The notes under the pieces are model-generated. The model was not told where the DNA came from. It searched no databases and saw nothing but the letters and a program-made list of their open reading frames with translations. Below are positions 1 through 36,125 of a DNA stretch of 36,125 bases, piece by piece; within the stretch, counting starts at the first letter, position 1, and every line of letters begins with the position of its first letter. The translations under genes were made by a program, and so were the position numbers. The DNA is from Lachnospiraceae bacterium (GTDB lineage Bacteria; Bacillota; Clostridia; Lachnospirales; Lachnospiraceae): positions 1-36,125 of the forward strand of contig JAFXGR010000029.1 in assembly GCA_017520155.1 (NCBI GenBank), given 5' to 3'.

Positions 1-101
1 AGGAAAACCACATTTTGTCTGTATTTTTTTAATTCTGCATACCACAGTTTCCCAATGGTCGTTTTGCCGGCTCCGGACAGACCTGTAATCCAATAAACCA
101 A
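1..101 (-). CDS. APS-kinase-like protein, probable cytidine diphosphoramidate kinase (5' end only)
   Basis: Only the first 33 codons are inside the window; the gene runs off the left edge. The residues include a P-loop GLSGAGKTT preceded by VYWIT, the start typical of adenylylsulfate kinase (CysC) folds. The best start is TTG at 101, six bases after an AGGTGA ribosome-binding site, because an in-frame stop (TAA) lies just upstream. A plain CysC would make PAPS, but no ATP sulfurylase is nearby. The gene is last in a run matching Campylobacter Cj1418-1417-1416-1415, where the CysC-like Cj1415 phosphorylates the 3'-hydroxyl of CDP-amidate to make a PAPS-like donor. I infer that role here. Family assignment is good for so short a piece; the substrate rests on context. 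Confidence 0.72.
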   Translation of the reverse strand, partial: MVYWITGLSGAGKTTIGKLWYAELKKYRQNVVF

Positions 102-136
102 TTTTTATCACCTGTTTCCTTATTATTAATATACAA

Positions 137-1834
137 TTAATTTTCAAGCGGCCATATGATATCTGTAATTAACTCATGCTTTTCTGTCCTCACATATTCA
201 AGAAAAAGTTTAATAATAGGGTCATGTGAAGGAGCTAAACTAGCAACGTACTTATTACTTTTTGTGGATAAATTTAGTGCAATACTATCTAATGTACTTT
301 CAAACTTAAAAGGATATTGAAAAAGTTCCTTTAAACATTCAAAAGAAAATTTAGTGTAATTTGGTATATCATTTCTATAACCATAGGATTCCTTAAAATT
401 ATGGAAAATCAAACTCAGTCTAAATAAATCAAAACTACTAAATAAAGAAGAAAAATCTTTTCGCTCTACAGAAGTAGTATCATTACTTGCAATCACTGTT
501 CCCTTCTTTTCTCCTGATGCCGAAGCTGGAAAATAAACTTCTATTCCATTAATTGTAGTATTAAGCATACATTGATCGAAAGGAATCTGCATCCACTCAC
601 AAACTGCTTTCATAGTCTGTAAAGTTTTTAATTTTGCATCTTCAAAACGTACTACCTTAATGATTTTATTCTCTGTGTACTTATTTTTTTCTAACATTAA
701 TCCCAAATCTGAGGAAATCCAATCCAAATAATTACTCGGATTATTCCATACAGAAAGAAAACCTGCATCAGCCTCTAGGATATGGCGTCTCAATATAGAA
801 AATAAATGTTGAATTGGTTCCCGAATGATGAACCAATATTCCAGCCGCTCAAAATCATTTTGGTTTAAAAGTGTATCCATTTCACTTATATCATAATTGG
901 CCTTATGGCAGTCATAAAAAATCCAAAGTTTTCCATCAGAAGCTGCTAACTTTCCAATGGCGTTTGCATAAGCTGCATAAATGGCTTTTATAAAAACAGC
1001 AAAGGAAATTTTACCTCGTTCCAACAATAGATTCTTTAAAGATTTTATAAATTTTGAAGTATCGATATAAATCCTTGTTTCACGTTCTCCATCCTTATTT
1101 TTAAACCAGTGATATGCAATTCTTGTACTATTCCCCCCATTCATATATTTTTCTTCAGGAAACTGTGATTCAAAATAGTGAAACATTTGGCTTGCAATTT
1201 CTACGACTAACTCTTTTCCTTCAAGATATTTTATACGATTTTCATAAAGCCATTTTAAGCGAACCCTAGCTCCAAGTTCCGGAATATTAAGAATATTCGG
1301 ATGTCCATTTAATAGAGAATCAAAATAAACAGCCCCACTATTGCTCATATGGTTTAAAACAATCATATTATGTATATCTTCTATATGAATTTCTGATTGT
1401 GCAGAAACCTGAGTTTCTTGTAAGGCTTCCCAACCTTTTTCTAATAGAAATATATAACGAAAGGGATGAAAACCTGAGCTTTCAGTATATAATCCTCGTT
1501 CCTTTAATCGATGGTTCATTATAGATCTGAAGCCAACTTTTTCATGACCAGACACCGCAGAAATATAAACCGCCTCTGGATATAAATGTGCTGCCTGGTC
1601 TAAAGAAAGAACAGGAATGGAAATCTCCTTATCCTGAAAACTTTTCCTCTGCTTTTCAGGTGCATCATCACAAAAGCATAGAGGAACCAGTTCAAAAAGG
1701 GAAAATATTCGATAGGTAATCTTTCCCCAAAATCCTGCCCCATAAATCACCAGACCGTGCTGGCGTATGTCTTCCACAATTGTATAAATACTTCTATATA
1801 CACCTGTTGCCTGTTTTTCTTTTTCCACTATCAT
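137..1834 (-). CDS. two-domain sulfotransferase-fold protein, candidate phosphoramidoyl transferase
   Basis: The 565-residue protein has an N-terminal Rossmann-like segment (about residues 27-110, glycine motif VIYGAGFWGK), as seen in several polysaccharide-locus proteins. A sulfotransferase-like domain starts near residue 156, where MSNSGAVYFDSLLNGHPNIL resembles the PAPS 5'-phosphosulfate loop (RSGTTLLxxLLxxHP) without its usual arginine. The ATG at 1834 follows GGAGAAA. It lies between the cytidylyltransferase and CDP-amidate kinase genes, 30 bases after the former. Sulfotransferases use a 3'-phosphorylated nucleotide donor; the final donor of the phosphoramidate pathway, 3'-phospho-CDP-amidate, has the same feature. 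I therefore infer transfer of phosphoramidate to a capsular sugar. Sulfation remains the alternative, but no PAPS-forming ATP sulfurylase is seen. No signal peptide; it probably acts in the cytoplasm. Confidence 0.6.
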   Translation of the reverse strand: MIVEKEKQATGVYRSIYTIVEDIRQHGLVIYGAGFWGKITYRIFSLFELVPLCFCDDAPEKQRKSFQDKEISIPVLSLDQAAHLYPEAVYISAVSGHEKVGFRSIMNHRLKERGLYTESSGFHPFRYIFLLEKGWEALQETQVSAQSEIHIEDIHNMIVLNHMSNSGAVYFDSLLNGHPNILNIPELGARVRLKWLYENRIKYLEGKELVVEIASQMFHYFESQFPEEKYMNGGNSTRIAYHWFKNKDGERETRIYIDTSKFIKSLKNLLLERGKISFAVFIKAIYAAYANAIGKLAASDGKLWIFYDCHKANYDISEMDTLLNQNDFERLEYWFIIREPIQHLFSILRRHILEADAGFLSVWNNPSNYLDWISSDLGLMLEKNKYTENKIIKVVRFEDAKLKTLQTMKAVCEWMQIPFDQCMLNTTINGIEVYFPASASGEKKGTVIASNDTTSVERKDFSSLFSSFDLFRLSLIFHNFKESYGYRNDIPNYTKFSFECLKELFQYPFKFESTLDSIALNLSTKSNKYVASLAPSHDPIIKLFLEYVRTEKHELITDIIWPLEN

Positions 1835-1864
1835 TTTCTCCTTTCTCCTTTTTATCTATGGTTA

Positions 1865-2647
1865 CTACAGATGAAGCAAATCCTCTATGCTTCCATCCTC
1901 CACCCATCCACAGGCCTTCTCGTAGTCCTCATTCGTATCAAATTCTATCCATCCGTGTTGGAAACGGACTGCCTTCACTTTCTGTCCCGATTCAATGATA
2001 GCGTTTAACAAATCCGTCATATATGCCTGTTTTACACTTTTTCCAGATTGCTGCCAGGGCTTATCTCCATACTCTACACAGGCTTTGCAAAACAGTTGTT
2101 CCAGATAGGCTAAGCCTTTTGGGGAAAACTTGAGTAAACCAATGTATCTTGCGTCAATTTTTTCCAAATCAGGATTTTCCAGACCCAGTTCAGTTATATT
2201 GTCATAAGCATCAATGGAAAGGCTTTCCGTATCAAACTCGATTTTCCCATACCTTTTTTGCCAATAAGTTTTCCATCCATCATCTACCGCCACAGAAAAA
2301 TCAAAAGGAACCTTAAGCATGCTTCTAAGCATAGCCTCTTCAACTAAAATATCTGAATAGCTCACAATAATCTCTTCATCAAATTCTTCTTTTGCCTTCA
2401 TAAAAGATGTCACCATATTGGTTTGTGCATAGTCCTCATTATGATAAAATACAATATCTGGATAATTAATTGTGTGTGCTGCAAAACCAGTCACAACAAT
2501 AATCTTTGTAATCCCACACTTTCGATAAAGTTCAATCTGCCGTTCAATAATCGTTTTTCCCATAAAGGACAACATTCCTTTTGGCAGATTCTTTGTATAC
2601 TTTTTTAATCTTGTTCCCTGTCCTGCTGCTAAGATAATTGCTTTCAT
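1865..2647 (-). CDS. nucleotidyltransferase, probable CTP:phosphoglutamine cytidylyltransferase
   Basis: This 260-residue protein starts with the NTP-transferase signature MKAIILAAGQGTRLKKYTKN, carries the lysine of LPKGML near residue 23, and has the metal-binding aspartate in VSYSDIL near residue 118. The NMVTSFMKAKE stretch is typical of the LicC/Cj1416 branch. In Campylobacter, Cj1416 joins CTP and L-glutamine phosphate to give gamma-glutamyl-CDP-amidate. It begins one base after the hydrolase gene, with AGGAG before the ATG, so the two are co-transcribed. LicC-type phosphocholine cytidylyltransferase is the main alternative, and a LicD-like gene is present at 6866, but the neighbouring glutamine-kinase and amidate-hydrolase genes favour the phosphoramidate role. 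Confidence 0.72.
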   Translation of the reverse strand: MKAIILAAGQGTRLKKYTKNLPKGMLSFMGKTIIERQIELYRKCGITKIIVVTGFAAHTINYPDIVFYHNEDYAQTNMVTSFMKAKEEFDEEIIVSYSDILVEEAMLRSMLKVPFDFSVAVDDGWKTYWQKRYGKIEFDTESLSIDAYDNITELGLENPDLEKIDARYIGLLKFSPKGLAYLEQLFCKACVEYGDKPWQQSGKSVKQAYMTDLLNAIIESGQKVKAVRFQHGWIEFDTNEDYEKACGWVEDGSIEDLLHL

Positions 2648-2648
2648 T

Positions 2649-3263
2649 TTAGACTCTCCTGCTTTTCATTATCCTTTTAAGATTCTCCATATCACGCTTA
2701 TGAAAAGGATCTTCTCTTTCGGGATGCCACATATTTCCCCAAAGAGGATATTGTTTATGTTTAACAGCTTCAATCACCCCATCTTCTGATTCTGCAACAG
2801 AAATTAAGCCGCTAGTATCCTTTAGCCTTATACAGGCCTGCTGATGATAGCTGTTTACTTCATCGATTTTTCCATCTCTAATGATTTGGTGGCGTTTTGC
2901 CACATGTCCTTGTACATCCACTAAGTCATTTCCAAAGTAGTCCAAAATAGATTGCATTCCTCTGCAAAATCCATACAAAGGTATTTGCTTTTGAATGCTG
3001 ATTTCAATCAGCTTTTTATCCATAGCATCTCTTTCTGGTGCATTTCCTCCATATTTAACAATACTATTTCCACCAGTAAGAATAATACCTATGGGCTGGA
3101 TATGAGAAAGAAAGCCTTCTACCAGTTGAGGTTTATTGGGCAAAGGAATGGGAAGATAGCCGCAGGCAGAAATAAAATCAACAATTCTTTGATCCGCAGC
3201 ATCCCTTTTTTCCTGATAACTGGTAACAGAATCCACTCTTTGTGTATAAATAATACTCTCCAT
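2649..3263 (-). CDS. class-I glutamine amidotransferase-like hydrolase, probable gamma-glutamyl-CDP-amidate hydrolase
   Basis: The protein belongs to the peptidase C26/class-I amidotransferase family. Counting from the GTG at 3269, the nucleophile is Cys102 in YGFCRGMQ, and the His and Glu of the triad lie in WHPERE (about 182 and 184); LTGGNS is the oxyanion segment. I prefer the ATG at 3263, seven bases after GGAG (204 residues). Cj1417 has the same size and fold and removes glutamate from gamma-glutamyl-CDP-amidate, releasing CDP-amidate. The position between a PEP-synthase-like glutamine kinase and a cytidylyltransferase makes that function likely. A general gamma-glutamyl hydrolase of the PuuD type is the alternative. 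Confidence 0.75.
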   Translation of the reverse strand: MESIIYTQRVDSVTSYQEKRDAADQRIVDFISACGYLPIPLPNKPQLVEGFLSHIQPIGIILTGGNSIVKYGGNAPERDAMDKKLIEISIQKQIPLYGFCRGMQSILDYFGNDLVDVQGHVAKRHQIIRDGKIDEVNSYHQQACIRLKDTSGLISVAESEDGVIEAVKHKQYPLWGNMWHPEREDPFHKRDMENLKRIMKSRRV

Positions 3264-3302
3264 AAGCACTCTCCATCTTTTGAAGGGATTTAATCATTTC
3301 CA

Positions 3303-5639
3303 CTACTGAATAACAATAACCTGTTTTTTTTCACAGTCTATGGTTAATCTTGTACATTTACTCCACCCCATAAAATTTTTTTCTCCCACACCAATAATGG
3401 CCGGTATTCCAAGCTCCGCACAACGAATTGCCATGTGTGAATTTACTCCTCCAAACTGGGTAATAAGCCCACCTATATTTTGGGAGAATAAAAAATCATA
3501 GCCTGGATCTGCTGACTGAATACAGACAATTTTACCCCTGATATCTGCTTTTTTACTGCTTAGGGTAATTACCTCTGAGGTAACTGTTTTTTGTGTAATA
3601 AAATTAGGTTCTTCTCCCAATAAAGAAAAAGAATAGATATCCTTTGGATTCACTATGATGCTTGGCAACTTTATTTGAAGTGCTGTATGGTATTGGAGTT
3701 TATTTTGCCGGATATTTTCTCTAAAGCTGGTTTCAATATCACCAACATACAAATCCGTATATAATTGCATCACAACGGAAATATCAAGATAAGCCATATC
3801 TTCAACAGCAATACCCACATGGTTGCCCAATTCTTCAATAAGCTTTAAAATCTGGCTTACCAGACGGGTAAAGGCAAACTTGGAATACTCTCTGCCTTCA
3901 ATGGCCTCTTTAATAAAGCTGATTAACTCTTTTGCTGATATAGAAAGTCCATTTTGTTCCAGCTCCAGATTAATTTTATCCATGACATCTTCTGAGAATT
4001 CAAAGACAGTTTCCTTCTCATCAATGGTCAAAAAGATATTTTCACCAAAATATTCGTTAAATGCCTCATCATACCTTTTTGATAAAATATCATAGGTCCC
4101 CGGACGGATATGCCCATATTGTGACAAAAAGTCTTCATAAGCCAGATTCCCTTGGTAGTATGCCTTTAAATCGCCATTCATCTTTTTATTAATGGTATCT
4201 AATGAATTCATAAAGGCATGATAATCTTCTTGACTAATAATATCCATCTCCACAAAAGATTTTAAGAATTGGATGGCAATAAATCCTGCTCTTGCAACCC
4301 CAGCAAAGGGAAGGGTTCCATATTCTTTGCACTCCATAATCAACCAGTAAATTTTATCAATCAGCGAAATATCAGAATCCATTATCTTTTTAAAATTTTG
4401 ATTCAAGATGCTGATCTTATGAATATCTTGCTTACACAACCCATTTTGTGGATTAATAATATTATTGGTTAAATTCAGAAGTGAAAATTCAATTCTTTTT
4501 AGTTCATTTTCATTAAATCCATAATCCAATAACTCTGTTAATTTATGAGGGAGTCCAAAGTAATAACAGGAGTATACTATTTCAAACTCTATTTTGTCGT
4601 GATATTTTGGATATTTTTCCAGTTTAGTCAGATAAAAATTTACCAGTTTTTCTGCAATTCTTACGTTCAAATCGGCCGGAATAAAGGAATTAAAGGTAAT
4701 TCTTGTATCAATGTAGGGAATCCCACAAAAAGAAACCATTAAAGGATGCATGGTCACATCCCTGTAGCCATAGTTTTTTCTTTGGTGAGCCCAGATGTAG
4801 TCAGTGATTAATTCTTTGTACAAGGATATAGCCATCTTTTTGGGACGGACACCTAAGATTTCTGCTGGATTCCAATCCGGCATAACACCAAAGCATGTAG
4901 TATCCCCCAATAAAAAAGGGTGCTTTTTTGACAATTTCATTACTTTCTTATAAATCCTCTCCAAAGAAAGGGATAAGTCTATGTGGGGAATTTCACATTT
5001 TTTTCCCTTGGCAATAGGCCTGACCTGTAAAATACAGACCTGATTATTACTGGTAATGGCAAACTCAATATCTAGGGCGGAAACTGCCAGAAACCTTTCA
5101 ATCTTTTTACAGATATCCACTACGGATTCTATATCACTATCCGCAATCTTATCAGAACTAAATTTATAGTGAATATAGGTTTTTAAATGACCGGAGCTAC
5201 CACTGGTGACAGCAGAGGTATCCTCACCTTCATGATAATTAATGATATAATAATCCGCATATGTATCCATGTCCGCAGTAAATACCACCCCCGATTTTTT
5301 TATCCCGGATAACATGGGCTGGATTAAAATTTCTTCATTTTGGCTTGTCTGGTAGGACTGATATACCTTCTGAACAGCTTCTTTGATTTCTTTTTCTTCT
5401 GGTTTTACATACAGAATACTTACAAATTTTCCTGCATTGGACGTAACGTCAGTATCTTCTGCCTTAGAGGAAGAACGGACAATCAAATTTTTCCCTTCCG
5501 CAAAACAAAGGATTTTTCTTATAAGACTATCCGGATTCGCAAGAAATTCCTGACTTTGAATAACCAGAAGAGGCAGGATATTCAAAGTAGGGATATTTTC
5601 TTTTAGATTTAGTAACATTCCTGCTTTTGTATAATTCAT
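3303..5639 (-). CDS. PEP-synthase-like phosphotransferase, probable L-glutamine kinase
   Basis: The 778-residue protein has an N-terminal ATP-grasp domain of the PEP synthase/PPDK type (IVRSSSKAEDTDVTSNAG, residues 53-70), a long middle region, and a C-terminal phosphohistidine domain with GGVNSHMAIRCAELGIPA, whose His735 fits the phosphorylated residue. The PEP/pyruvate TIM-barrel of true PEP synthases is missing, as in Campylobacter Cj1418. That enzyme uses ATP to phosphorylate the amide nitrogen of L-glutamine, the first step of phosphoramidate biosynthesis. This is the first gene of the five-gene cassette. An AAGGA site precedes the ATG, and the 96-base gap upstream (5640-5735) has a TATAAT-like sequence, so the cassette may have its own promoter. 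Rifampin phosphotransferases share the fold, but the context argues against that. Confidence 0.78.
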   Translation of the reverse strand: MNYTKAGMLLNLKENIPTLNILPLLVIQSQEFLANPDSLIRKILCFAEGKNLIVRSSSKAEDTDVTSNAGKFVSILYVKPEEKEIKEAVQKVYQSYQTSQNEEILIQPMLSGIKKSGVVFTADMDTYADYYIINYHEGEDTSAVTSGSSGHLKTYIHYKFSSDKIADSDIESVVDICKKIERFLAVSALDIEFAITSNNQVCILQVRPIAKGKKCEIPHIDLSLSLERIYKKVMKLSKKHPFLLGDTTCFGVMPDWNPAEILGVRPKKMAISLYKELITDYIWAHQRKNYGYRDVTMHPLMVSFCGIPYIDTRITFNSFIPADLNVRIAEKLVNFYLTKLEKYPKYHDKIEFEIVYSCYYFGLPHKLTELLDYGFNENELKRIEFSLLNLTNNIINPQNGLCKQDIHKISILNQNFKKIMDSDISLIDKIYWLIMECKEYGTLPFAGVARAGFIAIQFLKSFVEMDIISQEDYHAFMNSLDTINKKMNGDLKAYYQGNLAYEDFLSQYGHIRPGTYDILSKRYDEAFNEYFGENIFLTIDEKETVFEFSEDVMDKINLELEQNGLSISAKELISFIKEAIEGREYSKFAFTRLVSQILKLIEELGNHVGIAVEDMAYLDISVVMQLYTDLYVGDIETSFRENIRQNKLQYHTALQIKLPSIIVNPKDIYSFSLLGEEPNFITQKTVTSEVITLSSKKADIRGKIVCIQSADPGYDFLFSQNIGGLITQFGGVNSHMAIRCAELGIPAIIGVGEKNFMGWSKCTRLTIDCEKKQVIVIQ

Positions 5640-5735
5640 ATGTATTTTTCCTTAACTATTATTATAATCTTAGATTACTTGGAAAATATTTTCTTATAAC
5701 TTTTCATTATAGATGTTATAAAGAAAATATATATT

Positions 5736-6842
5736 TTAAATATTGTTCAAGTATAGGTGTTTTAAAATTTTATTGTCTGTTTCTATTTTTTTCTTCATAT
5801 CAATTTTCAGTGTATCTAGATATTTTTCTGTCCAATTTTGATCCAAAATATCAAACAGTAAAACCAATTCCTGCTTTGTAGCCATAATTACATTTTTTCT
5901 ATATTGGCAAAATTGGCTGCAAATTGTAGACTTCATAAGCATAAGTATTTCATAGGGTATAGGATCATATTGTAATAAAAATTTCCAAAATGTTTTTAGT
6001 AAATAAGTACGAAAATAAATATACTCTATAAACTCAGGATTATTTTTTAATGTTCCCCGTCTCTTACATTCTTGTAAATAAACATTTGCCACCTTACATC
6101 TTTCTAATTGAACTTTACTATTTACTGCTGTATCGTGAGAATAACTTCCCTTATATATTCTGTAGTTATAAAATGCTTCATCTAGCTTGCCAAATTTTGT
6201 ACAGTGAGTAACAAGGAGACCAGAAAAAAAGTTATCTGAAAATCCTGTATATTGACTCAGTTCATTATGATGAATATTATTTTTTATCAAAAAATTTCTA
6301 TTATATATTTTATTCCACGCAAATGTTGCACCTGGCAGAATATCCTCTAACGCCAAATCAATGCGGTCAGTCTCGTTTTTAATTTCATAAATATGAAAAT
6401 CTTCAACTCTTCCTCGCTTGACTTCTTTCACACCAGTTGCTTCATAATTATTGATATAATTATATTCTATGTAATCTATATCAGGACACTGATCAATATA
6501 GCTTTCAAGTCTTTCTAATGTATTTTCTTCATACCAATCATCCTGATCACAAAAAAGAATATATTTACCTTTTGCAGATAATACCCCTTTATTTCTATTG
6601 GATTTTTTAGTGTCTCTTGACCATTCATCGTTAAGAATCAATCTTATAATTTTAGGATATTTTTTTTGGTAATTCTTTATTATCTCTATAGAAGAATCTT
6701 TTGAAGTATCATCAATAATTAGTATCTCCACATCAGATATATCTCTAGTTTGATTAATTAGTGAATCTATACACTGATGCAAAAACATTTCACCATTATA
6801 GGAAAATACAATAATAGTAAATTTTATTTCCTTTAATTCCAC
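5736..6842 (-). CDS. family 2 glycosyltransferase
   Basis: A GT-A fold glycosyltransferase of family 2 (368 residues). The N-terminal strand KFTIIVFSYNGEMFLHQCID is followed by the nucleotide-binding IIDD (about residues 42-45) and the metal-binding DQDDW near residue 99. There are no clear membrane spans, so it should transfer a sugar from an NDP-sugar to a lipid-linked repeat unit at the cytoplasmic face. The C-terminal 150 residues are helix-rich and not recognisable. Donor and acceptor cannot be read from the sequence. It is very AT-rich, like its upstream neighbours, and lies 23 bases after the LicD-like gene. Confidence 0.9.
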   Translation of the reverse strand: MELKEIKFTIIVFSYNGEMFLHQCIDSLINQTRDISDVEILIIDDTSKDSSIEIIKNYQKKYPKIIRLILNDEWSRDTKKSNRNKGVLSAKGKYILFCDQDDWYEENTLERLESYIDQCPDIDYIEYNYINNYEATGVKEVKRGRVEDFHIYEIKNETDRIDLALEDILPGATFAWNKIYNRNFLIKNNIHHNELSQYTGFSDNFFSGLLVTHCTKFGKLDEAFYNYRIYKGSYSHDTAVNSKVQLERCKVANVYLQECKRRGTLKNNPEFIEYIYFRTYLLKTFWKFLLQYDPIPYEILMLMKSTICSQFCQYRKNVIMATKQELVLLFDILDQNWTEKYLDTLKIDMKKKIETDNKILKHLYLNNI

Positions 6843-6865
6843 TGTTCTACCTCATTCCATTCTTA

Positions 6866-7771
6866 TTATTTTAAAAGTACATAATCTTTATATGAAATAT
6901 CTGCATCCATATAAATTCCCTTATGCCAGATTCCCCTTTCTTCTAATGGAGGAAATTCCTCATATGTACCATAGAGCTTTGTTAAGACTTTTTCATATTC
7001 TTTAGGCACAGGAAACAACAATCCTTCAAACTCCATCTCTATCAATTCTTTTAATTCTTGATACAGAAAAACCTGTTTTTTCCAATTATAAATCGTAGAG
7101 ACGGCACATATCACATATTCTGTCGGTTTCTTATATTTTGTTGCAATTGAAGACATTTTTTCCCATTGCTTTAGAGGATCAATATCTCGTACCTTGTCAA
7201 CTCTTCTAGCCTCCTCACCACATAGATGAGGATTAGCTTTTCTCATATATGATGAATTATCAATATTTATTTCTTTAATAATGTTAAAATTTTTTTCAAT
7301 TTCGTTCAAATCACAGTTATCAAAAGGAAATATATCTAATGTCAGTCCTTGATTAAATTCTGCATAGCGAAAACTATCATGTACACAGCAAGTATTACTA
7401 TTCCTCAATTTTGCCATAGAATAATAAGTACCTTTATCTGTATAAGGAGTCTGAAAAAAATAGGGAAAATTAAATTCCTTTTCTCCAATTTTAAATAGCT
7501 TTTCATAGTCTTCCCTTAACATTCCTACATCTAGGTCATCATCCCAAGGAATAAATCCCTTATGTCTTACTGCACCTAAAAGACTGCCATACATCAAAAA
7601 ATATTTAAGTCCATTTTTTTTACATACTTCATCAAATTTTATTAACAAGTCTATTAAAACAGCCCATATTTTTTTTTGCCTGCTACTTATCGTAAAATCA
7701 CACCTAATCTCCTCGTTTAAAAATTGTGAAGGCAAAAACCTCTTCTCCATTATTCTATCATATTCTGCCAT
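6866..7771 (-). CDS. LicD family phosphotransferase
   Basis: The core LicD motif is clear at residues 61-84: YGSLLGAVRHKG followed by the acidic FIPWDDDLDVGM, a nucleotidyltransferase-fold metal site. LicD proteins transfer phosphocholine or other phosphorylated groups from CDP-linked or lipid donors to surface glycans. The window has no choline kinase or choline transporter, so phosphocholine is not assured. Because the same operon probably makes CDP-linked intermediates, a role in attaching a phospho-substituent is reasonable but unproven. The ATG follows AAGGGG at nine bases. Confidence 0.85.
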   Translation of the reverse strand: MAEYDRIMEKRFLPSQFLNEEIRCDFTISSRQKKIWAVLIDLLIKFDEVCKKNGLKYFLMYGSLLGAVRHKGFIPWDDDLDVGMLREDYEKLFKIGEKEFNFPYFFQTPYTDKGTYYSMAKLRNSNTCCVHDSFRYAEFNQGLTLDIFPFDNCDLNEIEKNFNIIKEINIDNSSYMRKANPHLCGEEARRVDKVRDIDPLKQWEKMSSIATKYKKPTEYVICAVSTIYNWKKQVFLYQELKELIEMEFEGLLFPVPKEYEKVLTKLYGTYEEFPPLEERGIWHKGIYMDADISYKDYVLLK

Positions 7772-7816
7772 AATACTTTTAATCCCCTTATAATCCTGTG
7801 CAATATCAAGATTAAT

Positions 7817-8824
7817 CTATAGTCTGTTACTTTTCCAATCCAAATCACATATCATATAAAAACTTTCATTAGACGCTTCTTCTAGCATGCTGAATCCATT
7901 ATTCTCATAAAATTTAATTGCTTTTTTATTATCTTTTCTTACTTCTAATTTTACCTTTTCAAACGAATGATATCTTGCAAACTCAAAACATTTTTGAAGC
8001 AAAGTCTTACCAACATGTTTATTTTGATACTTTTTCCTCACAACTATCAAAGAAATATATGCCTCTTTGGTTGACAAATCATTGGCATACATAGCAACAT
8101 AACCCAATACTTCATAATTGTAAGCAATAATAAAATAGGCATAGTTATCTATTTTCTCTAAAAGTTGATTAAAATCTGATCTAATACAAATTGGATACAT
8201 AAATGCACTGTCACAGGTTTCCATAATATGTTTTTTCACCATATTGGATATTTCTGTGCAGATGCAGTAATCAGGAAGATATTTTACCTCTCCCCCCCCC
8301 CCGAACATTTTGTACTTATATTCATCCTTTAAAATAGAATACAAATACATATCCATATATTCATTATTTTTAAATATTACTTTACGCTTTATTCCTTCTC
8401 TCACAAATCCTACTTTTTCATATAGATGCTGAGCAGCTAAATTATTCTCCAAAACTAAAAGTTCAACACGTTGTAAATTCATATTATTAAATGCATGTTG
8501 TAGCATTGTATTAACTGCAAATGTACCAGCACCTTTCCTACGTTTTTCATATTCTCCAATCATAATATGAAACTCTGCTGACCGATTTATGTAATCAATA
8601 GAAAGCAAACTAACTAATCCTATAATCTCACCACTATTTTTTTCTACAATTGTACATCTTATAGAATTTCCTCTATTTGACATATAAGCTTCAAACCATT
8701 GTTCGTCTACAGTAAGGTTAACATACCGAAAAGGAGCTCCTAACAGCTTAATTAATTCAGGATTATTGCGCCACTTATTGATTAAACATAAATCGCTCTT
8801 TTGCAATTCTCTTAAATAAAACAT
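7817..8824 (-). CDS. double GNAT acetyltransferase, two domains joined across a G11 tract
   Basis: Two N-acetyltransferase domains lie in one reading frame. Residues 1-168 form a RimJ/RimL-like GNAT domain (YEKRRKGAG acetyl-CoA loop near 93-101, then NNLAAQHLYEKVGF). Residues 181-335 form a second GNAT domain (VRKKYQNKHVGKTLLQKC, then NKKAIKFYENNGF). The linker FGGGGE is encoded by a run of 11 G on the coding strand. In a sugar-amine operon the likely job is N-acylation of a nucleotide-linked amino sugar made by the neighbouring aminotransferases; which domain does it is unknown. Loss or gain of one G stops translation within a few codons after domain 1, so the fusion may switch on and off. 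Confidence 0.85.
   Translation of the reverse strand: MFYLRELQKSDLCLINKWRNNPELIKLLGAPFRYVNLTVDEQWFEAYMSNRGNSIRCTIVEKNSGEIIGLVSLLSIDYINRSAEFHIMIGEYEKRRKGAGTFAVNTMLQHAFNNMNLQRVELLVLENNLAAQHLYEKVGFVREGIKRKVIFKNNEYMDMYLYSILKDEYKYKMFGGGGEVKYLPDYCICTEISNMVKKHIMETCDSAFMYPICIRSDFNQLLEKIDNYAYFIIAYNYEVLGYVAMYANDLSTKEAYISLIVVRKKYQNKHVGKTLLQKCFEFARYHSFEKVKLEVRKDNKKAIKFYENNGFSMLEEASNESFYMICDLDWKSNRL
8292..8302 (-). repeat. mononucleotide tract of 11 G (coding strand) inside the double GNAT gene
   Basis: Eleven uninterrupted C on the plus strand encode the Gly-Gly-Gly-Gly linker between two acetyltransferase domains. With 10 G the next codons read GAG AGG TAA; with 12 G a TGA follows after eight codons. 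Such tracts in otherwise AT-rich DNA are typical slipped-strand contingency sites. Confidence 0.85.
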
Positions 8825-8857
8825 CTATATCATTCCTTCACAAAATTTTATAGCTTA

Positions 8858-9829
8858 TCATACACTATTATCTACTAACTTTAAAATTTCTTGTGCCATG
8901 TACTGCATATCTGATTCAGCATATCTTTGGTCAATGGGTAATGGTAAAATATTATTGGCTAACTCATATTCCACCTCCTGGCTCTGACACACTTCTAAAA
9001 CATTAGGCCATAAAACAGGAATATATATTTTTTTCTCAATAAGCCTTCTACGTATTTTACTTCCGTTTTTTATCCAAAAGGGATACATAAAACCGCCCTT
9101 AATATTCTTTAATTTTAGCCTGTTCTTTTTCCCTAACCTCTCTTGTAAGATTAAAAAATTATTGGTTCTTTTTTTCTTTATTTTATCATAATCAATTGCC
9201 CGAAGTATATTCTCAGTCAACTTTGACATTCTCATAGGAGGCAATTGAGAAAACGCTTCTTCATTCTTCAAAAAATCCTTATAAAACATAGAGGTCTCCT
9301 TTTCAAATGCCCCCAAGATATGAGACATTCTATGAGCAGACAAATCAAAAATCAATCGATTATCCATGTCTAATTTGGAACTAAGTAATCCTCCATCCGA
9401 TACTCCAAAAAATTTACGACATGAATATATCGTGTCAATATTTTCAAGAGGTTTTTGAAAAAAAGCATGTGTTGAATCAACAATTACTCTTTCATATTTA
9501 TTGACTATCTTTTTTATGTCAGCATTAGAAAATTGACCATAATAATTTATAAAATATAACCAATCATTCTCATCTAATTCTATCTTTTCAGGAATAAAAC
9601 TTTCATTTATTCTATAAAACTTTAAATCTACTTTTTCCTTTTGGCATGCATCAATCACAGTGTCACATAAAAAATAGGGCATCCATATACACTTTATATT
9701 TCTTTTTTGAATTAAATATCTCAAACATCCTCTTCCAGTATTTAACAACAATACATCTTTGTGATATAAATCACCTGTATATATATCTAAATTTAAATAA
9801 CCTCCAATTTCTTTGTTATTCTTTAGCAT
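8858..9829 (-). CDS. DegT-like PLP-dependent aminotransferase-fold protein
   Basis: A divergent, compact member of the fold-type I aminotransferase group (323 residues). The PLP-ring aspartate is likely in VIVDSTHAFF (Asp118), and the Schiff-base lysine in YSCRKFFGVSDGG (Lys139). It is shorter than standard DegT/EryC1 enzymes (about 370). A good GGAGG precedes the ATG. It shares the operon with a full-length sugar aminotransferase, a WbqC-like protein and acetyltransferases, which points to amino-sugar synthesis. I cannot tell whether it is active on its own or works with the partner aminotransferase. Confidence 0.7.
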   Translation of the reverse strand: MLKNNKEIGGYLNLDIYTGDLYHKDVLLLNTGRGCLRYLIQKRNIKCIWMPYFLCDTVIDACQKEKVDLKFYRINESFIPEKIELDENDWLYFINYYGQFSNADIKKIVNKYERVIVDSTHAFFQKPLENIDTIYSCRKFFGVSDGGLLSSKLDMDNRLIFDLSAHRMSHILGAFEKETSMFYKDFLKNEEAFSQLPPMRMSKLTENILRAIDYDKIKKKRTNNFLILQERLGKKNRLKLKNIKGGFMYPFWIKNGSKIRRRLIEKKIYIPVLWPNVLEVCQSQEVEYELANNILPLPIDQRYAESDMQYMAQEILKLVDNSV

Positions 9830-9858
9830 GATTAATATACCTCCAACCAGTAAAGCCT

Positions 9859-10557
9859 CTATTTTAATTGATAGTTTCTCAACATTTCTTTAACAGATTG
9901 AGGAGAATTAAACATAAGTGTATCCAGAATAGATAATGCTGGAATAAATTCTTTCCCAAATTGTAAATATGTAATATTAGGATTCATCATAATGAATTTT
10001 AAAATAATATTATTTTGATGAAATCTCTCTTTACAATATAAATTCTGTCCTCCTATAGGATTGATATATTCATCTGCTCCTATTTCCTTACATATTGCTA
10101 AAACCTTTTCTTCTCCTTTTAGATTATGATTTATATTCAAAGAGGAAGAAATAATTATTTCCGTGTCAATCTCCAAATAATTTGTTATTTGCTTAATCGA
10201 ATTAAAGATATAATTGAATAAATTATAATCTTCAAAATCAATACAATCACAAAATATAGGAAAAATCTCATCATAAAAAGGAGCTTTTCTATAAGCAATA
10301 TTTATTTGATTTTTTATTTTTTCCTTATTGAAATTCTGTGATACTTTTCGCTCATATACATCAAGAAAATCTGAGTCTTTTTCAATAGGTATTGTAAAAA
10401 ATCTATCTTCATTATTTAGCAAATATCTATTACGATTAAACCAACCTTTTTTTGTATATTGGATATTATCATATATCACCATTTTATTCACAGCGTAAAT
10501 TAATTGAAAATACCCTAAATATGGGAAAAAATATGGTTGCATTATTCCTATTTTCAT
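9859..10557 (-). CDS. WbqC-like family protein
   Basis: The N-terminus MKIGIMQPYFFPYLGYFQLI and the following VIYDNIQYTKKGWFNRNR are hallmarks of the WbqC family, which occurs in O-antigen and capsule loci, often beside DegT aminotransferases. Biochemical function is poorly defined in the family; I infer a part in amino-sugar synthesis or modification. The 232-residue length is normal. The start ATG has only a weak ribosome-binding site, and a perfect 24-base palindrome lies just upstream. Confidence 0.85.
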   Translation of the reverse strand: MKIGIMQPYFFPYLGYFQLIYAVNKMVIYDNIQYTKKGWFNRNRYLLNNEDRFFTIPIEKDSDFLDVYERKVSQNFNKEKIKNQINIAYRKAPFYDEIFPIFCDCIDFEDYNLFNYIFNSIKQITNYLEIDTEIIISSSLNINHNLKGEEKVLAICKEIGADEYINPIGGQNLYCKERFHQNNIILKFIMMNPNITYLQFGKEFIPALSILDTLMFNSPQSVKEMLRNYQLK

Positions 10558-10570
10558 TTTTTTATACCAT

Positions 10571-10594
10571 TAAGAATATTAATTAATATTCTTA
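10571..10594. promoter_or_regulatory. perfect 24-base AT-rich palindrome upstream of the WbqC-like gene
   Basis: Two 12-base arms (TAAGAATATTAA and its reverse complement) meet without a loop, ending 14 bases before the ATG at 10557. It could be an operator or a 5' hairpin limiting translation. The rest of the 281-base gap 10558-10838 is AT-rich, and I see no gene in it. Confidence 0.4.
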
Positions 10595-10838
10595 CCTATT
10601 TTTATGATATACTTTATGTAAAAAAACCAATTTTTTAATAAACAAATTCTATAGTTCTTTAATAATCCCAAAATTATTTGGTTTTAATAGCATCTATACC
10701 TTTGGTATTATATCTCTGCTTTACTAATAAAGTCAATATATTTTATAATAATTTATATTTTACTATATTTTTCCAACACCCTATTCAATGCAAAAGAATA
10801 ATCTAAATCTTCCTAAAGAGTAATCCTATTGCATTAAA

Positions 10839-11945
10839 TCAACCCTTCGCTAAAATATCACACACTTTATCAATTACTTCAAATGGTAAATCAGCATATA
10901 AAGGAAGCACTAAAACCTCTCTGCTTAGCTGTCTGGCATTATCCAACTGCATATAGCGGTATTTATTTTTAAAACATGCCTGGTCAGATGTTAAAGGATA
11001 GAAATACTTTCTTGCATAAATACCCTCATTTCGTAATTTTTCATACAAAGTATCCCTATCAAATTGACAGCTCTCTGTAACCAATATAGGAAAATAAGCA
11101 TAATTTTTTTCTGTTTCAGAGCTTTCTTCAAACCGTCGGATTCCTTCGATTTGCTGAATTCTTTCCACATAAGCCTCATATCGCTTTTTTCTTTCCATAA
11201 AAACTTCATCTATATAATTTAAATTACATAGTCCCATGATGGCTGCCAATTCATTCATTTTTGCATTGGCTCCTACTTCTGTTACTAATTCTTCACCACG
11301 TATTCCAAAGTTTTTCAGATTATATAATTTGTCATAAAGCTTTCGGTCTTTGAATGTTACTCCTCCACCTTCTACAGTATTGAATACCTTTGTTGCATGA
11401 AAACTGAAAATAGAGGCATCACCAAAAGCACCAATTCCTTCGCCACGATAGGTTACCCCAAATGCATGAGCTGCATCATAAATTACTTTCAGACCATATG
11501 CATCTGCAAGTTCTTGTATCTTCTCTATATTACAAATATTTCCATACACATGTACGGGTACAATAGCAACTGTATTTTCTGTAATCAGAGCTTCAATTTT
11601 TGATTCATCTATGGTGCCATCACTAAACTTGACATCGCAAAATACTGGTTTTAAACGGTTTCTGACAATGGCATGGGTTGTAGAAATAAAGGTAAAGGGG
11701 GTAGTAATTACCTCTGCATTTTCCGGGAATCCCATAGCCTGAATGGCTAGCTCCAATGCCAAATGTCCATTTACCATCAATGACAGCTCAGGTACCTTCA
11801 GATATTCTTTTAGCCGCTGTTCCAATTCCCTGTGATACTGCCCCATATTGGTTAACCAATGTGTATCCCACAACGGCTTAATCGCTTGAATATATTCTTC
11901 ATAAGGCGGCATAGAAGAACGCGTAACAAGTATTTTTTCCTTCAT
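10839..11945 (-). CDS. DegT/DnrJ/EryC1/StrS sugar aminotransferase
   Basis: A full-length (368 residues) PLP-dependent nucleotide-sugar aminotransferase. Asp157 in IYDAAHAFG contacts the PLP nitrogen, and Lys186 in SFHATKVFNTVEGGG is the Schiff-base lysine. It most resembles enzymes that aminate dTDP-4-keto-6-deoxy or dTDP-3-keto-6-deoxy hexoses (VioA/FdtB/QdtB type); exact sugar and position cannot be read. The ATG follows AAGGAG at about eight bases. It is the first minus-strand gene of the polysaccharide block in this window, preceded by 486 bases without an intact gene, so the operon promoter may lie there; I do not see a convincing one. Confidence 0.9.
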   Translation of the reverse strand: MKEKILVTRSSMPPYEEYIQAIKPLWDTHWLTNMGQYHRELEQRLKEYLKVPELSLMVNGHLALELAIQAMGFPENAEVITTPFTFISTTHAIVRNRLKPVFCDVKFSDGTIDESKIEALITENTVAIVPVHVYGNICNIEKIQELADAYGLKVIYDAAHAFGVTYRGEGIGAFGDASIFSFHATKVFNTVEGGGVTFKDRKLYDKLYNLKNFGIRGEELVTEVGANAKMNELAAIMGLCNLNYIDEVFMERKKRYEAYVERIQQIEGIRRFEESSETEKNYAYFPILVTESCQFDRDTLYEKLRNEGIYARKYFYPLTSDQACFKNKYRYMQLDNARQLSREVLVLPLYADLPFEVIDKVCDILAKG

Positions 11946-12184
11946 ACTAAATTCTCCTTACTACTGTTTTATATATATCGGATTAAAATGACAAAATATT
12001 TACATTAAGTATAAGATTCAAACAAATTTTAATGGTATTTTTTATCATTTTAACCAAATAAATCAAATTTTCCTCTTTAAGTGTACCTGGTACAAACACA
12101 GTATGTAGTAATCAGTGAACAGGTAAAAAGAGATTTCCAATATCCGATTTGATAGAAATTTGTTATCCATTAGTGGTTTGCAAT

Positions 12185-12319: not shown

Positions 12320-12431
12320 CATAAGTTTTTGAATAGTATAATATCGCATAAAAAGAAAATATATGCTATACTATCGACATGGAAATACATCCGTACCCAT
12401 TGATTTTGATTCCACGGAAAGGATGATATAC

Positions 12432-13496
12432 ATGCCCAGAGGAAAAGCGTTAAAAAATCCTAATGGTTATGGTTCTGTCGTCAAATTATCTGGTCGCAGA
12501 AGAAAGCCTTATGAAGTTAGAGTGAATACTCGGATGGATGAAAGGTATTACCCAGTTTATGATGTACTTAACCGTTTTGAAACCCGGGAAGCTGCCATGA
12601 TTGCATTAGCAGAATACAATAAGAAGCCTTATAATATAAAAGACCGTAATATTACTTTTAAGCAATTGTATAAGCAGTTTTACGAAGAAAAATTTGAACG
12701 TGGCGGTAAAAGATTTTCGGATAGTACCATATACTGTACAACAGCAGCCTATAGACATTGCAGTCCTTTATATAATCTTCCCTATCGAAAACTCCGTACC
12801 AATGACTTTATGAGTATTCTCAATAAAAGAAACCATAAAGGAGCTATGTTGTCACACGCCATGCAAGAGCATATTAAGAATCTTTTTAATCAAATGGATA
12901 GACATGCATTACAAAATGACATTATTGAAAAAGGATATGCTGCTTTTGTTAAAATTACAGTAAAGGAAGACGATCAGCCCGGGATTCCATTTACTGCGGA
13001 AGAACTGGATATATTGTGGAAACATCAGGATACCCCTTGGGTAGATAGTATTTTAATTTATATTTATTCCGGCTGGAGAGTCTCAGAATTAATTCGAATG
13101 CCTACTAAAGACATCAATTTGAAAGAGTGGACATTTAAAGGAGGTCTGAAAACTACTGCTGGAAAAAATCGGATTGTTCCAATCCATTCTAAAATACGAA
13201 AATTTGTAAAAAGAAGATTAAAAGAAAATAATGGTATCCTATTTATCTACGATGGACACCCTATTACTACTGGAAAGTATATTAAATTATTTAAAGCCAC
13301 TTTAGAATCTATCGGAATTACAGCCTATCATACTCCTCATGACTGTCGTCATACCTTTACTTCCCTTTTAGATAGCGCGGGAGCTAATCAGGTATGTATT
13401 GACCGTCTGATAGGGCATGCTTCCAAGTCACTGACCAAACGAACCTATACACATAAGGATATTGAGGAATTACGCCAAGCGATAGAATTAATTTAA
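12432..13496 (+). CDS. tyrosine recombinase/integrase
   Basis: A site-specific recombinase (354 residues from the ATG at 12432, preceded by AAAGGA; an earlier in-frame ATG at 12363 lacks a ribosome-binding site). Catalytic residues are in place: Arg216 in SGWRVSELI, His303 and Arg306 in HTPHDCRHTF, His329 in LIGHAS and the nucleophile Tyr339 in RTYTH. An Arm/SAM-like DNA-binding region precedes the catalytic domain. It stands alone on the plus strand facing away from the capsule operon, with no excisionase, phage or conjugation genes. It could be the remnant of an integrated element or a locus-specific recombinase that rearranges the glycan locus; no matched inverted repeats around a promoter were found to support the latter. 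Confidence 0.93.
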   Translation: MPRGKALKNPNGYGSVVKLSGRRRKPYEVRVNTRMDERYYPVYDVLNRFETREAAMIALAEYNKKPYNIKDRNITFKQLYKQFYEEKFERGGKRFSDSTIYCTTAAYRHCSPLYNLPYRKLRTNDFMSILNKRNHKGAMLSHAMQEHIKNLFNQMDRHALQNDIIEKGYAAFVKITVKEDDQPGIPFTAEELDILWKHQDTPWVDSILIYIYSGWRVSELIRMPTKDINLKEWTFKGGLKTTAGKNRIVPIHSKIRKFVKRRLKENNGILFIYDGHPITTGKYIKLFKATLESIGITAYHTPHDCRHTFTSLLDSAGANQVCIDRLIGHASKSLTKRTYTHKDIEELRQAIELI

Positions 13497-17397: not shown

Positions 17398-17565
17398 TGT
17401 TGCTTACGGATTTCTTCGCGTTTCACGCTCACGAAATCCTAAAAATATTTGAAATCCGCAGACTTTTCTGCGAAAAAGGGCTACTTTCTCATGTTTTGTG
17501 GGTTCCAAAGTCATCTATTTTCATGTAAGCAAGAAAATAGATGACCTTTTGACCCTAGTATCATA
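17398..17565 (+). repeat. structured dispersed element forming the ABC-F 5' leader
   Basis: About 165 bases holding several hairpins: GGATTTC...GAAATCC enclosing GCGT/ACGC, CGCAGA...TCTGCG, and an 11-bp perfect stem CATCTATTTTC/GAAAATAGATG near 17511-17542. A near-identical copy of its first ~110 bases is at 36022-36125. Its end (TTTTGACCCTAGTATCATA) is a reverse-complement match, with three mismatches, to the start of that second copy, suggesting terminal inverted repeats of a MITE-like element. Confidence 0.7.
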
Positions 17566-21759: not shown

Positions 21760-21845
21760 ATTCCAACATTGACACTCCCCTTAACTAAAGAAAGGGGATT
21801 TACGACACATTGGATAAAATCGCTGGTAGACAAGGAGGTAAAGAG

Positions 21846-35986: not shown

Positions 35987-36125
35987 TATGATGTTGGGGT
36001 CAAAAGCATTTGACCCCTTGATGCTTACGGATTTCTTCGCGTTTCACGCTCACGAAATCCTAAAAGATTCGAAATCCGCACATTTTTCTACGAAAAATGG
36101 CTACTTTCTCATGTTTTGTGGGTCC
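35987..36125 (+). repeat. second copy of the structured dispersed element, cut by the window edge
   Basis: Starts with the 22-base end also seen at 14208, followed by a self-complementary GGGGTCAAA/TTTGACCCC hairpin. From 36022 it matches the ABC-F leader almost base for base (TGCTTACGGATTTCTTCGCG onward). It is in the same orientation as the ABC-F copy and may precede another plus-strand gene beyond the window. Confidence 0.75.

What the first reader, a model, noticed from the sequence alone, without database searches (positions are those of the whole stretch)
1..5639. Campylobacter-type phosphoramidate biosynthesis cassette in a Gram-positive capsule locus
Four gene families (PEP-synthase-like kinase with phosphohistidine domain but no PEP barrel, small class-I amidotransferase, LicC-like cytidylyltransferase, APS-kinase-like protein) occur in the same order as C. 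jejuni Cj1418-1417-1416-1415, where they convert L-glutamine, ATP and CTP to 3'-phospho-CDP-amidate for O-methyl phosphoramidate capsule modification. Gene sizes and catalytic residues agree (Cys/His/Glu triad, His735). It predicts a P-N bond containing surface decoration on a gut Clostridium, which might affect phage and immune recognition. No Cj1419/Cj1420-like methyltransferase is seen, so the group could be unmethylated, or the methyltransferase could lie beyond the window.
Basis: partly seen in the sequence, partly recalled or inferred. Interest (0 to 1): 0.88.

Follow-up and report, generated by a model that had tools for sequence, protein, structure and literature searches.

The report
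Phosphoramidate glycan-decoration genes in a Firmicute
A gut-type Firmicute, probably of the Lachnospiraceae, carries the gene set that Campylobacter uses to build a rare phosphorus-nitrogen group for its sugar coat, here with a sulfotransferase-like enzyme that may attach it, and related gene sets turn up in many other bacterial phyla.

Summary
On the minus strand lie a glutamine-kinase-type protein (5639-3303), a class-I amidotransferase (3269-2649), a LicC-like cytidylyltransferase (2647-1865) and the first 33 residues of an APS-kinase-like protein (101-3), cut by the contig end. The finding does not mention a 565-aa gene between the last two (1834-137); its family profile matches sulfotransferases. 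The three complete enzymes resemble the C. jejuni set (48, 33 and 34% identity) and keep the catalytic residues. Of 85 kinase-selected loci, 75 hold all three core genes, in at least 12 phyla; CysC-like, methyltransferase, sulfotransferase-like and CysQ genes recur beside them, and four fused genes join the parts. Best reading: a phosphoramidate-donor pathway with sulfation-like logic, ending in a sulfotransferase-like transferase. The chemistry is inferred from homology; the transferase role is a prediction. Against: the six closest kinase relatives lack this transferase type, the amidotransferase is below its curated cut-off, CysC is a stub, and no capsule export genes are seen. Methylation stays open. 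New variant of a known kind.

The parts
3303..5639 (-). Glutamine-kinase-type PEP-synthase-like protein, 778 aa (ATP-binding + phosphohistidine domain, H735)
   Evidence: NF004508 985 bits, cut-off 501; 47.6% identity to a C. jejuni homologue, L023; tree places it with Lachnospiraceae cassette kinases
2649..3269 (-). Class-I amidotransferase, candidate gamma-glutamyl-CDP-amidate hydrolase, 206 aa (C102, H182, E184)
   Evidence: Best NCBIfam match NF045546, 113 bits, BELOW cut-off 250, next family 43 bits; 33% to the C. jejuni homologue; triad in 76 of 76 members
1865..2647 (-). LicC-like cytidylyltransferase, candidate CTP:phosphoglutamine cytidylyltransferase, 260 aa
   Evidence: PF12804/PF00483; PDB 1jyk E 2.4e-13; 34% to the C. 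jejuni homologue; 296 bits to the cassette-specific profile
137..1834 (-). 565-aa protein: N-terminal Rossmann-like part (my reading; only a weak NeuD match) + sulfotransferase-like domain with loop MSNSG (163-167) and R338-E339-P340; candidate phosphoramidate transferase
   Evidence: No Pfam match alone and no meaningful PDB match alone; family profile A4 matches 10 PDB sequences, the best CurM sulfotransferase, E 2.4e-8; of 8 relatives scanned 5 pass PF13469 and one more PF00685; relatives lie beside other cassettes
1..101 (-). First 33 residues of an APS-kinase-like (CysC) protein, candidate CDP-amidate kinase, cut by the contig end
   Evidence: PF01583 22.9 bits, cut-off 21.1; only CysC match in the genome at E <= 0.001; 72% identity over 32 residues to the CysC of L013
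5736..6842 (-). Context: GT2 glycosyltransferase
   Evidence: PF00535
6866..7771 (-). Context: LicD-family protein
   Evidence: PF04991; LicD found within 6 kb of the kinase in only 2 of 85 loci, window included
7817..8824 (-). Context: double GNAT acetyltransferase, PseH-like
   Evidence: TIGR03585 114.6 bits, cut-off 93.1
8858..9829 (-). Context: unassigned 323-aa gene
   Evidence: No Pfam family
9859..10557 (-). Context: WbqC-like protein
   Evidence: PF08889
10839..11945 (-). Context: DegT/DnrJ sugar aminotransferase
   Evidence: PF01041
12363..13496 (+). Context: phage-type integrase at the border of the low-GC glycan region
   Evidence: PF00589; GC 0.30-0.35 over 1-12 kb, 0.42-0.45 in six of the seven 3-kb steps from 15 kb on (0.376 at 21-24 kb)

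Best explanation
An operon that makes an activated phosphoramidate group and puts it on a surface glycan. Steps 1-4 are inferred from homology to the C. [quoted passage not shown] (2) the cytidylyltransferase 2647-1865 joins the product to CTP, giving CDP-L-glutamine; (3) the amidotransferase 3269-2649 cleaves off glutamate, leaving CDP-amidate; (4) the CysC-like kinase (101-<1) adds a 3'-phosphate, giving 3'-phospho-CDP-amidate, an analogue of PAPS. Step 5 is my prediction: the sulfotransferase-like protein 1834-137 transfers the phosphoramidate to a sugar made by the neighbouring glycan genes, leaving 3'-phospho-CMP, which a CysQ-type nucleotidase (found near the kinase in 16 of 85 loci, not in the window) would recycle. 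Whether the group is O-methylated cannot be decided, because the contig ends just inside CysC.
For: From sequence: four families in order; identity to C. jejuni homologues 47.6/33.3/34.1% with conserved catalytic residues; kinase in the cassette clade, apart from six non-cassette paralogues. Of 85 kinase-selected loci (window included): amidotransferase in 76, cytidylyltransferase in 78, CysC in 64 (the window's stub not counted), Cj1419/1420-type methyltransferase in 59 within 6 kb; complete trio in 75. Fusions CysC-kinase (L059), cytidylyltransferase-kinase (L003, L005) and CysC-methyltransferase (L025) tie the parts to one pathway. The family profile of 1834-137 matches PAPS sulfotransferases, E 2.4e-8. 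A sulfotransferase-like gene lies within 8 kb of the kinase in 30 of 85 loci, window included (28 by profile; L072 and L078 by Pfam); it is directly upstream of cysC, as in the window, in 13 of the 58 loci listed (L072). Its own family is rare: 2 of 299 family genomes (own included; E <= 1e-10), both next to the kinase, and 1 of 391 class genomes, the own one (E <= 1e-20). CysQ-like genes within 6 kb in 16 of 85; of 4 scanned, all have TIGR01331 as best match and 2 pass its cut-off. No Sat or CysD in this genome nor in G104, G273 and G251.
Against: The amidotransferase is below its curated cut-off (113 of 250), as are those of L050 (107) and L009 (141). NF004508 is also passed by paralogues without a cassette (699 and 777 bits), so passing it is not specific. 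CysC is 33 residues: its substrate cannot be judged. The six closest kinase relatives (L006, L007, L008, L081, L098, L099) have neither the 1834-137 type nor a DUF2972 transferase in their loci. No transferase of either type was found in 38 of 85 loci, some of them cut by contig ends. In the PDB alignments the N-terminal loop is placed but not significant alone (2.6-3.0 bits). The C. jejuni transferases (DUF2972) are linked to sulfotransferases only weakly (hhalign probability 11%; A4 against A5 2%). L081's genome does have CysD. No structure prediction was possible and no chemistry was measured.
Confidence: 0.7

Rival explanations
1. Sulfation: the CysC-like protein is a true APS kinase and 1834-137 a true PAPS sulfotransferase; the trio is a separate system beside them.
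For: CysC families are annotated adenylyl-sulfate kinase and the transferase domain matches PAPS sulfotransferases; a sulfate permease gene lies at 15568-17223; L081's genome has CysD, and cysD/cysN lie beside the kinase in L003.
Against: Across eight cassette-type genomes Sat was found in 0 of 8 and CysD in 1 of 8; CysC is fused to the kinase (L059) and to the methyltransferase (L025); CysC within 6 kb of the kinase in 64 of 85 loci. The own MAG is 81% complete, so absence in it alone is weak.
Confidence: 0.1
2. Phosphocholine (or another CDP-linked group) decoration: the LicC-like cytidylyltransferase and LicD at 6866-7771 form a LicC/LicD pair, unrelated to phosphoramidate.
For: LicD lies in the same gene row, three genes between; LicC is the best PDB match; members of this enzyme family use phosphocholine, phosphoglutamine, phosphoglycerate and, by hypothesis, phosphothreonine (passages of PMC12275187, and PMC10714395).
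Against: The gene lies one base from the amidotransferase gene and belongs to the cassette-specific subfamily present in 78 of 85 loci, whereas LicD was found within 6 kb in only 2 of 85. It does not explain kinase, amidotransferase or CysC. LicD may still act on the same glycan.
Confidence: 0.08
3. Same donor pathway, but transfer is by another protein (for example LicD, or a transferase beyond the contig end), and 1834-137 does something else.
For: The six closest relatives have no detected sulfotransferase-like or DUF2972 gene; PF00884 sulfatase-fold proteins lie within 8 kb of the kinase in L018 (over the cut-off) and, below the cut-off, in L007 and L099.
Against: 1834-137 sits inside the operon; its family was found in none of the other 297 of 299 family genomes, only in the own one and G251, both beside the kinase.
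Confidence: 0.25

Closest known systems
Campylobacter jejuni O-methyl phosphoramidate (MeOPN) pathway, Cj1415-Cj1418 with Cj1419/1420 and Cj1421/1422
   Same: Kinase, amidotransferase and cytidylyltransferase homologous in the same order, with a CysC-like gene downstream; catalytic residues conserved
   Different: A sulfotransferase-like gene instead of DUF2972 transferases, placed between cytidylyltransferase and CysC; no methyltransferase visible; low-GC region beside an integrase in a Firmicute
Anaerotruncus colihominis DSM 17241 locus (L050)
   Same: CysC, two 1834-137 homologues (38% identical), methyltransferase, kinase, amidotransferase and cytidylyltransferase, all of full length by ORF
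   Different: Methyltransferase present; different gene order; kinase in another clade
PAPS-dependent sulfation (CysC, sulfotransferase, CysQ)
   Same: Same enzyme families for the late steps: 3'-kinase, sulfotransferase-like domain, bisphosphate nucleotidase
   Different: ATP sulfurylase not found in 7 of 8 genomes tested; the activated group is predicted to be an amidate on CDP, not sulfate on AMP
Clostridioides difficile type A flagellar glycan (CD0241-0244)
   Same: LicC-like cytidylyltransferase proposed to activate an amino-acid phosphate for a glycan in a Firmicute (hypothesis in PMC10714395, passages)
   Different: No glutamine kinase, amidotransferase or CysC in that model as described in the passages

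Membership tests
Phosphoramidate-donor (MeOPN-type) pathway | Glutamine kinase homologous to Cj1418 | tested here: met
   47.6% identity to L023; NF004508 985 bits (also passed by paralogues); cassette clade in tree
Phosphoramidate-donor (MeOPN-type) pathway | Gamma-glutamyl-CDP-amidate hydrolase by curated model NF045546 | tested here: not met
   Best family but 113 bits, cut-off 250; C. jejuni homologue 331; cassette members of other phyla also below it: L050 107, L009 141
Phosphoramidate-donor (MeOPN-type) pathway | CTP:phosphoglutamine cytidylyltransferase | tested here: inconclusive
   Belongs to the cassette subfamily, 34% to L023; no specific curated model among the 25 of 42 families shown; substrate untested
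Phosphoramidate-donor (MeOPN-type) pathway | CysC-like CDP-amidate kinase | tested here: inconclusive
   Only 33 N-terminal residues present
Phosphoramidate-donor (MeOPN-type) pathway | Methyltransferase of Cj1419/1420 type | tested here: not met
   None in the window or the held genome, but the contig ends inside CysC and the MAG is 81% complete. Not essential: the group is also seen without methyl in C. jejuni (PMC9561416, passage)
Phosphoramidate-donor (MeOPN-type) pathway | DUF2972 transferase (Cj1421/1422 type) | tested here: not met
   No match to the DUF2972 profile in the window
Phosphoramidate-donor (MeOPN-type) pathway | Formation of P-N products | not testable with these tools
   Needs enzymology or 31P NMR
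PAPS sulfotransferase superfamily | Homology of the family profile to known sulfotransferases | tested here: met
   10 PDB sequences, best 2.4e-8; G167, R338 and P340 invariant in 10 of 10 rows. Single-sequence searches found nothing
PAPS sulfotransferase superfamily | Use of PAPS | not testable with these tools
   No assay; no ATP sulfurylase found in the own genome
Sulfate-assimilation APS kinase | ATP sulfurylase in the same genome | tested here: not met
   PF01747 and TIGR02039: 0 matches in G000, G104, G273, G251; CysN matches all below the cut-off
LicC/LicD phosphocholine system | Recurrent association of this cytidylyltransferase with LicD | tested here: not met
   LicD near 2 of 85 loci, the window and L006

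The most novel reading that the evidence does not exclude
Phosphoramidation is a widespread second 'sulfation-like' glycan decoration system. A common donor, 3'-phospho-CDP-amidate, is made by one cassette found in at least 12 phyla. It is used by exchangeable transferases, many of sulfotransferase descent (as at 1834-137), with CysQ removing the 3',5'-bisphosphate, and capped by methyl or, in some lineages, perhaps formyl groups or nothing. The 3'-phosphate added by the CysC-like kinase would then be the handle for a PAPS-type binding site.
Probability: 0.5. Interest if true: 0.82.

Novelty: new variant of a known kind. Interest (0 to 1): 0.64.

Why it matters
P-N bonds are rare in biology. 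A 2019 review says these modified sugars were so far identified only in Campylobacter (PMC6429109, passage), and a 2022 review calls the glutamine kinase C. jejuni-specific (PMC9561416, passage). If the reading holds, many gut and environmental bacteria can make this group, which in C. jejuni plays a role in phage recognition (same review). It would also explain why the pathway adds a 3'-phosphate: to suit a sulfotransferase-type transferase. A version with all parts lies in the complete genome of a named strain (Anaerotruncus colihominis DSM 17241, L050), so it is directly testable.

Tried and rejected
Rifampin phosphotransferase or PEP synthase: rejected (36 bits, or partial matches of 68 bits or less, against 985). 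The LicC/LicD and sulfation readings were weighed and set lower (see rivals). A direct link between the C. jejuni DUF2972 transferases and sulfotransferases was tried by profile comparison and remains unproven: the sulfotransferase-like profile was the best of 11 partner profiles but at probability 11%, and the PDB hits, all sulfotransferases, had E 2.6. A survey of 299 family genomes gave 10 kinase hits, but 6 are paralogues without a cassette; NF004508 alone must not be used to count carriers. The other 455 of the 535 relatives were not looked at; the 80 kept are the best matches to a profile headed by this window, so percentages are not a census. The tree is a quick one, SH-aLRT only; L003 and L004 are flagged long branches and L004 may be drawn falsely towards the paralogues. 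The cytidylyltransferase profile was rebuilt after a fused kinase contaminated it; counts were rechecked. CysN search: 4 of 4 genomes match below the cut-off, best 116 bits of 336, which I read as other GTPases. No tRNA in the window. Repeat search gave nothing useful. Paper searches whose listings showed no report of this pathway in Firmicutes: phosphoramidate + sulfotransferase + Campylobacter (2 of 2 listed), Gram-positive/Lachnospiraceae terms (15 of 714 listed), CDP-amidate/phosphoglutamine (12 of 12), glutamine kinase + phosphoramidate (10 of 10). Related reports seen: Helicobacter homologues of cj1419-1422 (PMC6247508, passage) and Borg elements with O-methyl-phosphoramidate-type genes (PMC12660748, passage). 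Two primary Raushel papers asked for were not held; step chemistry beyond the quoted passages is recalled.
Full report
WHAT IS THERE. The window is bases 1-36125 of contig C7 of an 81% complete genome. Sporulation genes, Clostridiales-1 RNAs and the nearest kinase relatives point to a clostridial host, probably Lachnospiraceae; the genome itself is unnamed. Reading along the minus strand from 5639: a 778-aa kinase (5639-3303), a 206-aa amidotransferase (3269-2649), a 260-aa nucleotidyltransferase (2647-1865), a 565-aa protein (1834-137), and a TTG-started open frame of 33 residues (101-3) that runs off the contig. Gaps are 33, 1, 30 and 35 bases, so one operon is likely (inference). The last frame reads MVYWITGLSGAGKTT... 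and matches PF01583 APS kinase at 22.9 bits, cut-off 21.1. It is the only such match in the genome.

FAMILY ASSIGNMENT. The kinase matches the ATP-binding and phosphohistidine domains only. It matches NF004508 nearly end to end at 985 bits (cut-off 501), the next family at 68 bits and rifamycin phosphotransferase at 36. A record named C. jejuni GP013 (L023) carries, in order, two methyltransferases, kinase, amidotransferase, cytidylyltransferase and CysC; I take these as the Cj1420-Cj1415 set (numbering recalled). Against it the window proteins show 47.6, 33.3 and 34.1% identity. The L023 kinase scores 1173 bits with NF004508, and its amidotransferase passes NF045546 gamma-glutamyl-CDP-amidate hydrolase (331 bits, cut-off 250); the window's amidotransferase has that family as its best match but at 113 bits, below the cut-off. 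H735 is present in 85 of 85 kinases, C102/H182/E184 in 76 of 76 amidotransferases, and G9, R13, K23 and D99 in 78 of 78 cytidylyltransferases.

NEIGHBOURHOODS. Within 6 kb of the kinase: amidotransferase 76, cytidylyltransferase 78, CysC 64 (the window's stub not counted), methyltransferase 59, window-type sulfotransferase-like 17 (window included), DUF2972 17. All three core genes: 75 of 85. By record titles, complete trios occur in Bacillota, Campylobacterota, Bacteroidota, Spirochaetota, Pseudomonadota, Nitrospirota, Nitrospinota, Verrucomicrobiota, Myxococcota, Omnitrophota, Cloacimonadota and Ignavibacteriota (titles; trios); many records are MAGs, so single phyla may be misbinned. Four fused genes join CysC-kinase, cytidylyltransferase-kinase (twice) and CysC-methyltransferase.

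PHYLOGENY AND DISTRIBUTION. The window kinase falls with L006, L007, L008, L081 and L098 (SH-aLRT 95) and, with L099 added, 100. In 299 genomes of its family 10 have a kinase hit. Six are paralogues without the other cassette genes and form their own clade (100). Four lie in glycan-type regions: the own genome; G104 and G273 with CysC, amidotransferase and cytidylyltransferase; and G251, where the contig ends in the kinase and only the 1834-137 homologue is seen beside it. The distribution is sporadic. The window's glycan region has GC 0.30-0.35 against mostly 0.42-0.45 beyond 15 kb, with an integrase at its edge: probably a mobile island (inference).

THE 565-AA PROTEIN. Alone it has no Pfam match and no meaningful PDB match. 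A profile of ten relatives matches ten PDB sequences, nine named sulfotransferases and one a polyketide synthase entry, best E 2.4e-8; the significant stretch holds the R-[DE]-P region, and the N-terminal loop is placed but not significant alone. Of eight relatives scanned, five pass PF13469, L012 passes PF00685 only, L077 is below the cut-off and L080 has no match. Sulfotransferase-like genes lie within 8 kb of 30 of 85 kinases (28 by profile; L072 and L078 by Pfam; two other candidates scanned there, L015 and L004, had no match), and in none of the 17 loci with a DUF2972 transferase. All 17 are Campylobacter or Helicobacter relatives, so this split follows taxonomy. In 13 of 58 loci the sulfotransferase-like gene sits directly upstream of CysC, as here (L072). 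The window's own family was found in 2 of 299 family genomes, both beside the kinase, and in none of 391 class genomes except its own.

SULFATION-LIKE LOGIC. A figure legend quoted gives 3'-phospho-5'-cytidine diphosphoramidate as an intermediate of the C. jejuni pathway; that the CysC-like Cj1415 makes it is recalled. That molecule resembles PAPS. CysQ-type 3'(2'),5'-bisphosphate nucleotidases lie within 6 kb of 16 of 85 kinases; four were scanned, TIGR01331 is the best match of all four and two pass its cut-off. Across eight cassette-type genomes Sat was found in none and CysD in one, that of L081. The recurrence of CysC, a sulfotransferase-like protein and CysQ, mostly without ATP sulfurylase, suggests that the transfer step works like sulfation with an amidate in place of sulfate. 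This is an inference; no passage seen here states it.

METHYLATION. No methyltransferase of the Cj1419/1420 type is in the window or the held genome. Two lines disagree: where a sulfotransferase-like gene directly precedes CysC, a methyltransferase follows CysC (once fused to it) in 12 of 13 loci; but the six closest kinase relatives lack one in their loci, five of their six genomes gave no match at E <= 1e-8, and the sixth holds two in a second, separate cassette. In L007, L008 and L098 a formyltransferase-family gene lies close to CysC.

WHAT IS NOT SHOWN. No chemistry; no full CysC; no capsule export genes, so the acceptor could be capsule, wall glycan or flagellin. Flagellar genes lie near the cassette in L099 and L009.

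VERDICT. It is a new variant of the Campylobacter pathway with a different candidate transferase, and it points to a widespread system.

Noticed in passing
L100 3198-6233, L101 7788-10835, L102 7313-10387: Glutamine-kinase-like proteins of 1011-1024 aa; in L101, the one scanned, the C-terminus matches NF045546 (72 bits, cut-off 250), a kinase-amidotransferase fusion, with no cytidylyltransferase or CysC nearby; a paralogue clade of unknown use.
   Followed up: partly
L007 13416, L008 13402, L062 7887, L063 7127, L069 8649, L073 7063, L098 9982; by eye also L099 6399: A formyltransferase-family gene (PF00551 in L008 and L098, the two scanned) near CysC, in four loci with a ~190-aa unassigned partner; the six strong profile hits among 85 loci all lack the methyltransferase, while five weaker ones (L009, L014, L031, L036, L078) have it. 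Possible alternative cap on the amidate.
   Followed up: partly
   Followed up: partly
L099 3-1414; L009 21692-22312: Flagellar genes (FliF, FliE; FliD) near the cassette, pointing to flagellin glycan as a possible target.
   Followed up: no
window 12363-13496 and 1-12000: Integrase at the border of a low-GC glycan region: likely mobile island.
   Followed up: no
window 21810-23249: NADAR-DarT1-type antitoxin domain protein in a lower-GC patch.
   Followed up: no
window 15568-17223: SulP sulfate permease with STAS domain, although no ATP sulfurylase was found in the held genome.
   Followed up: partly
window 17398-17563 and 36019-36125: Two Clostridiales-1 RNA genes, the second cut by the window end.
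   Followed up: no
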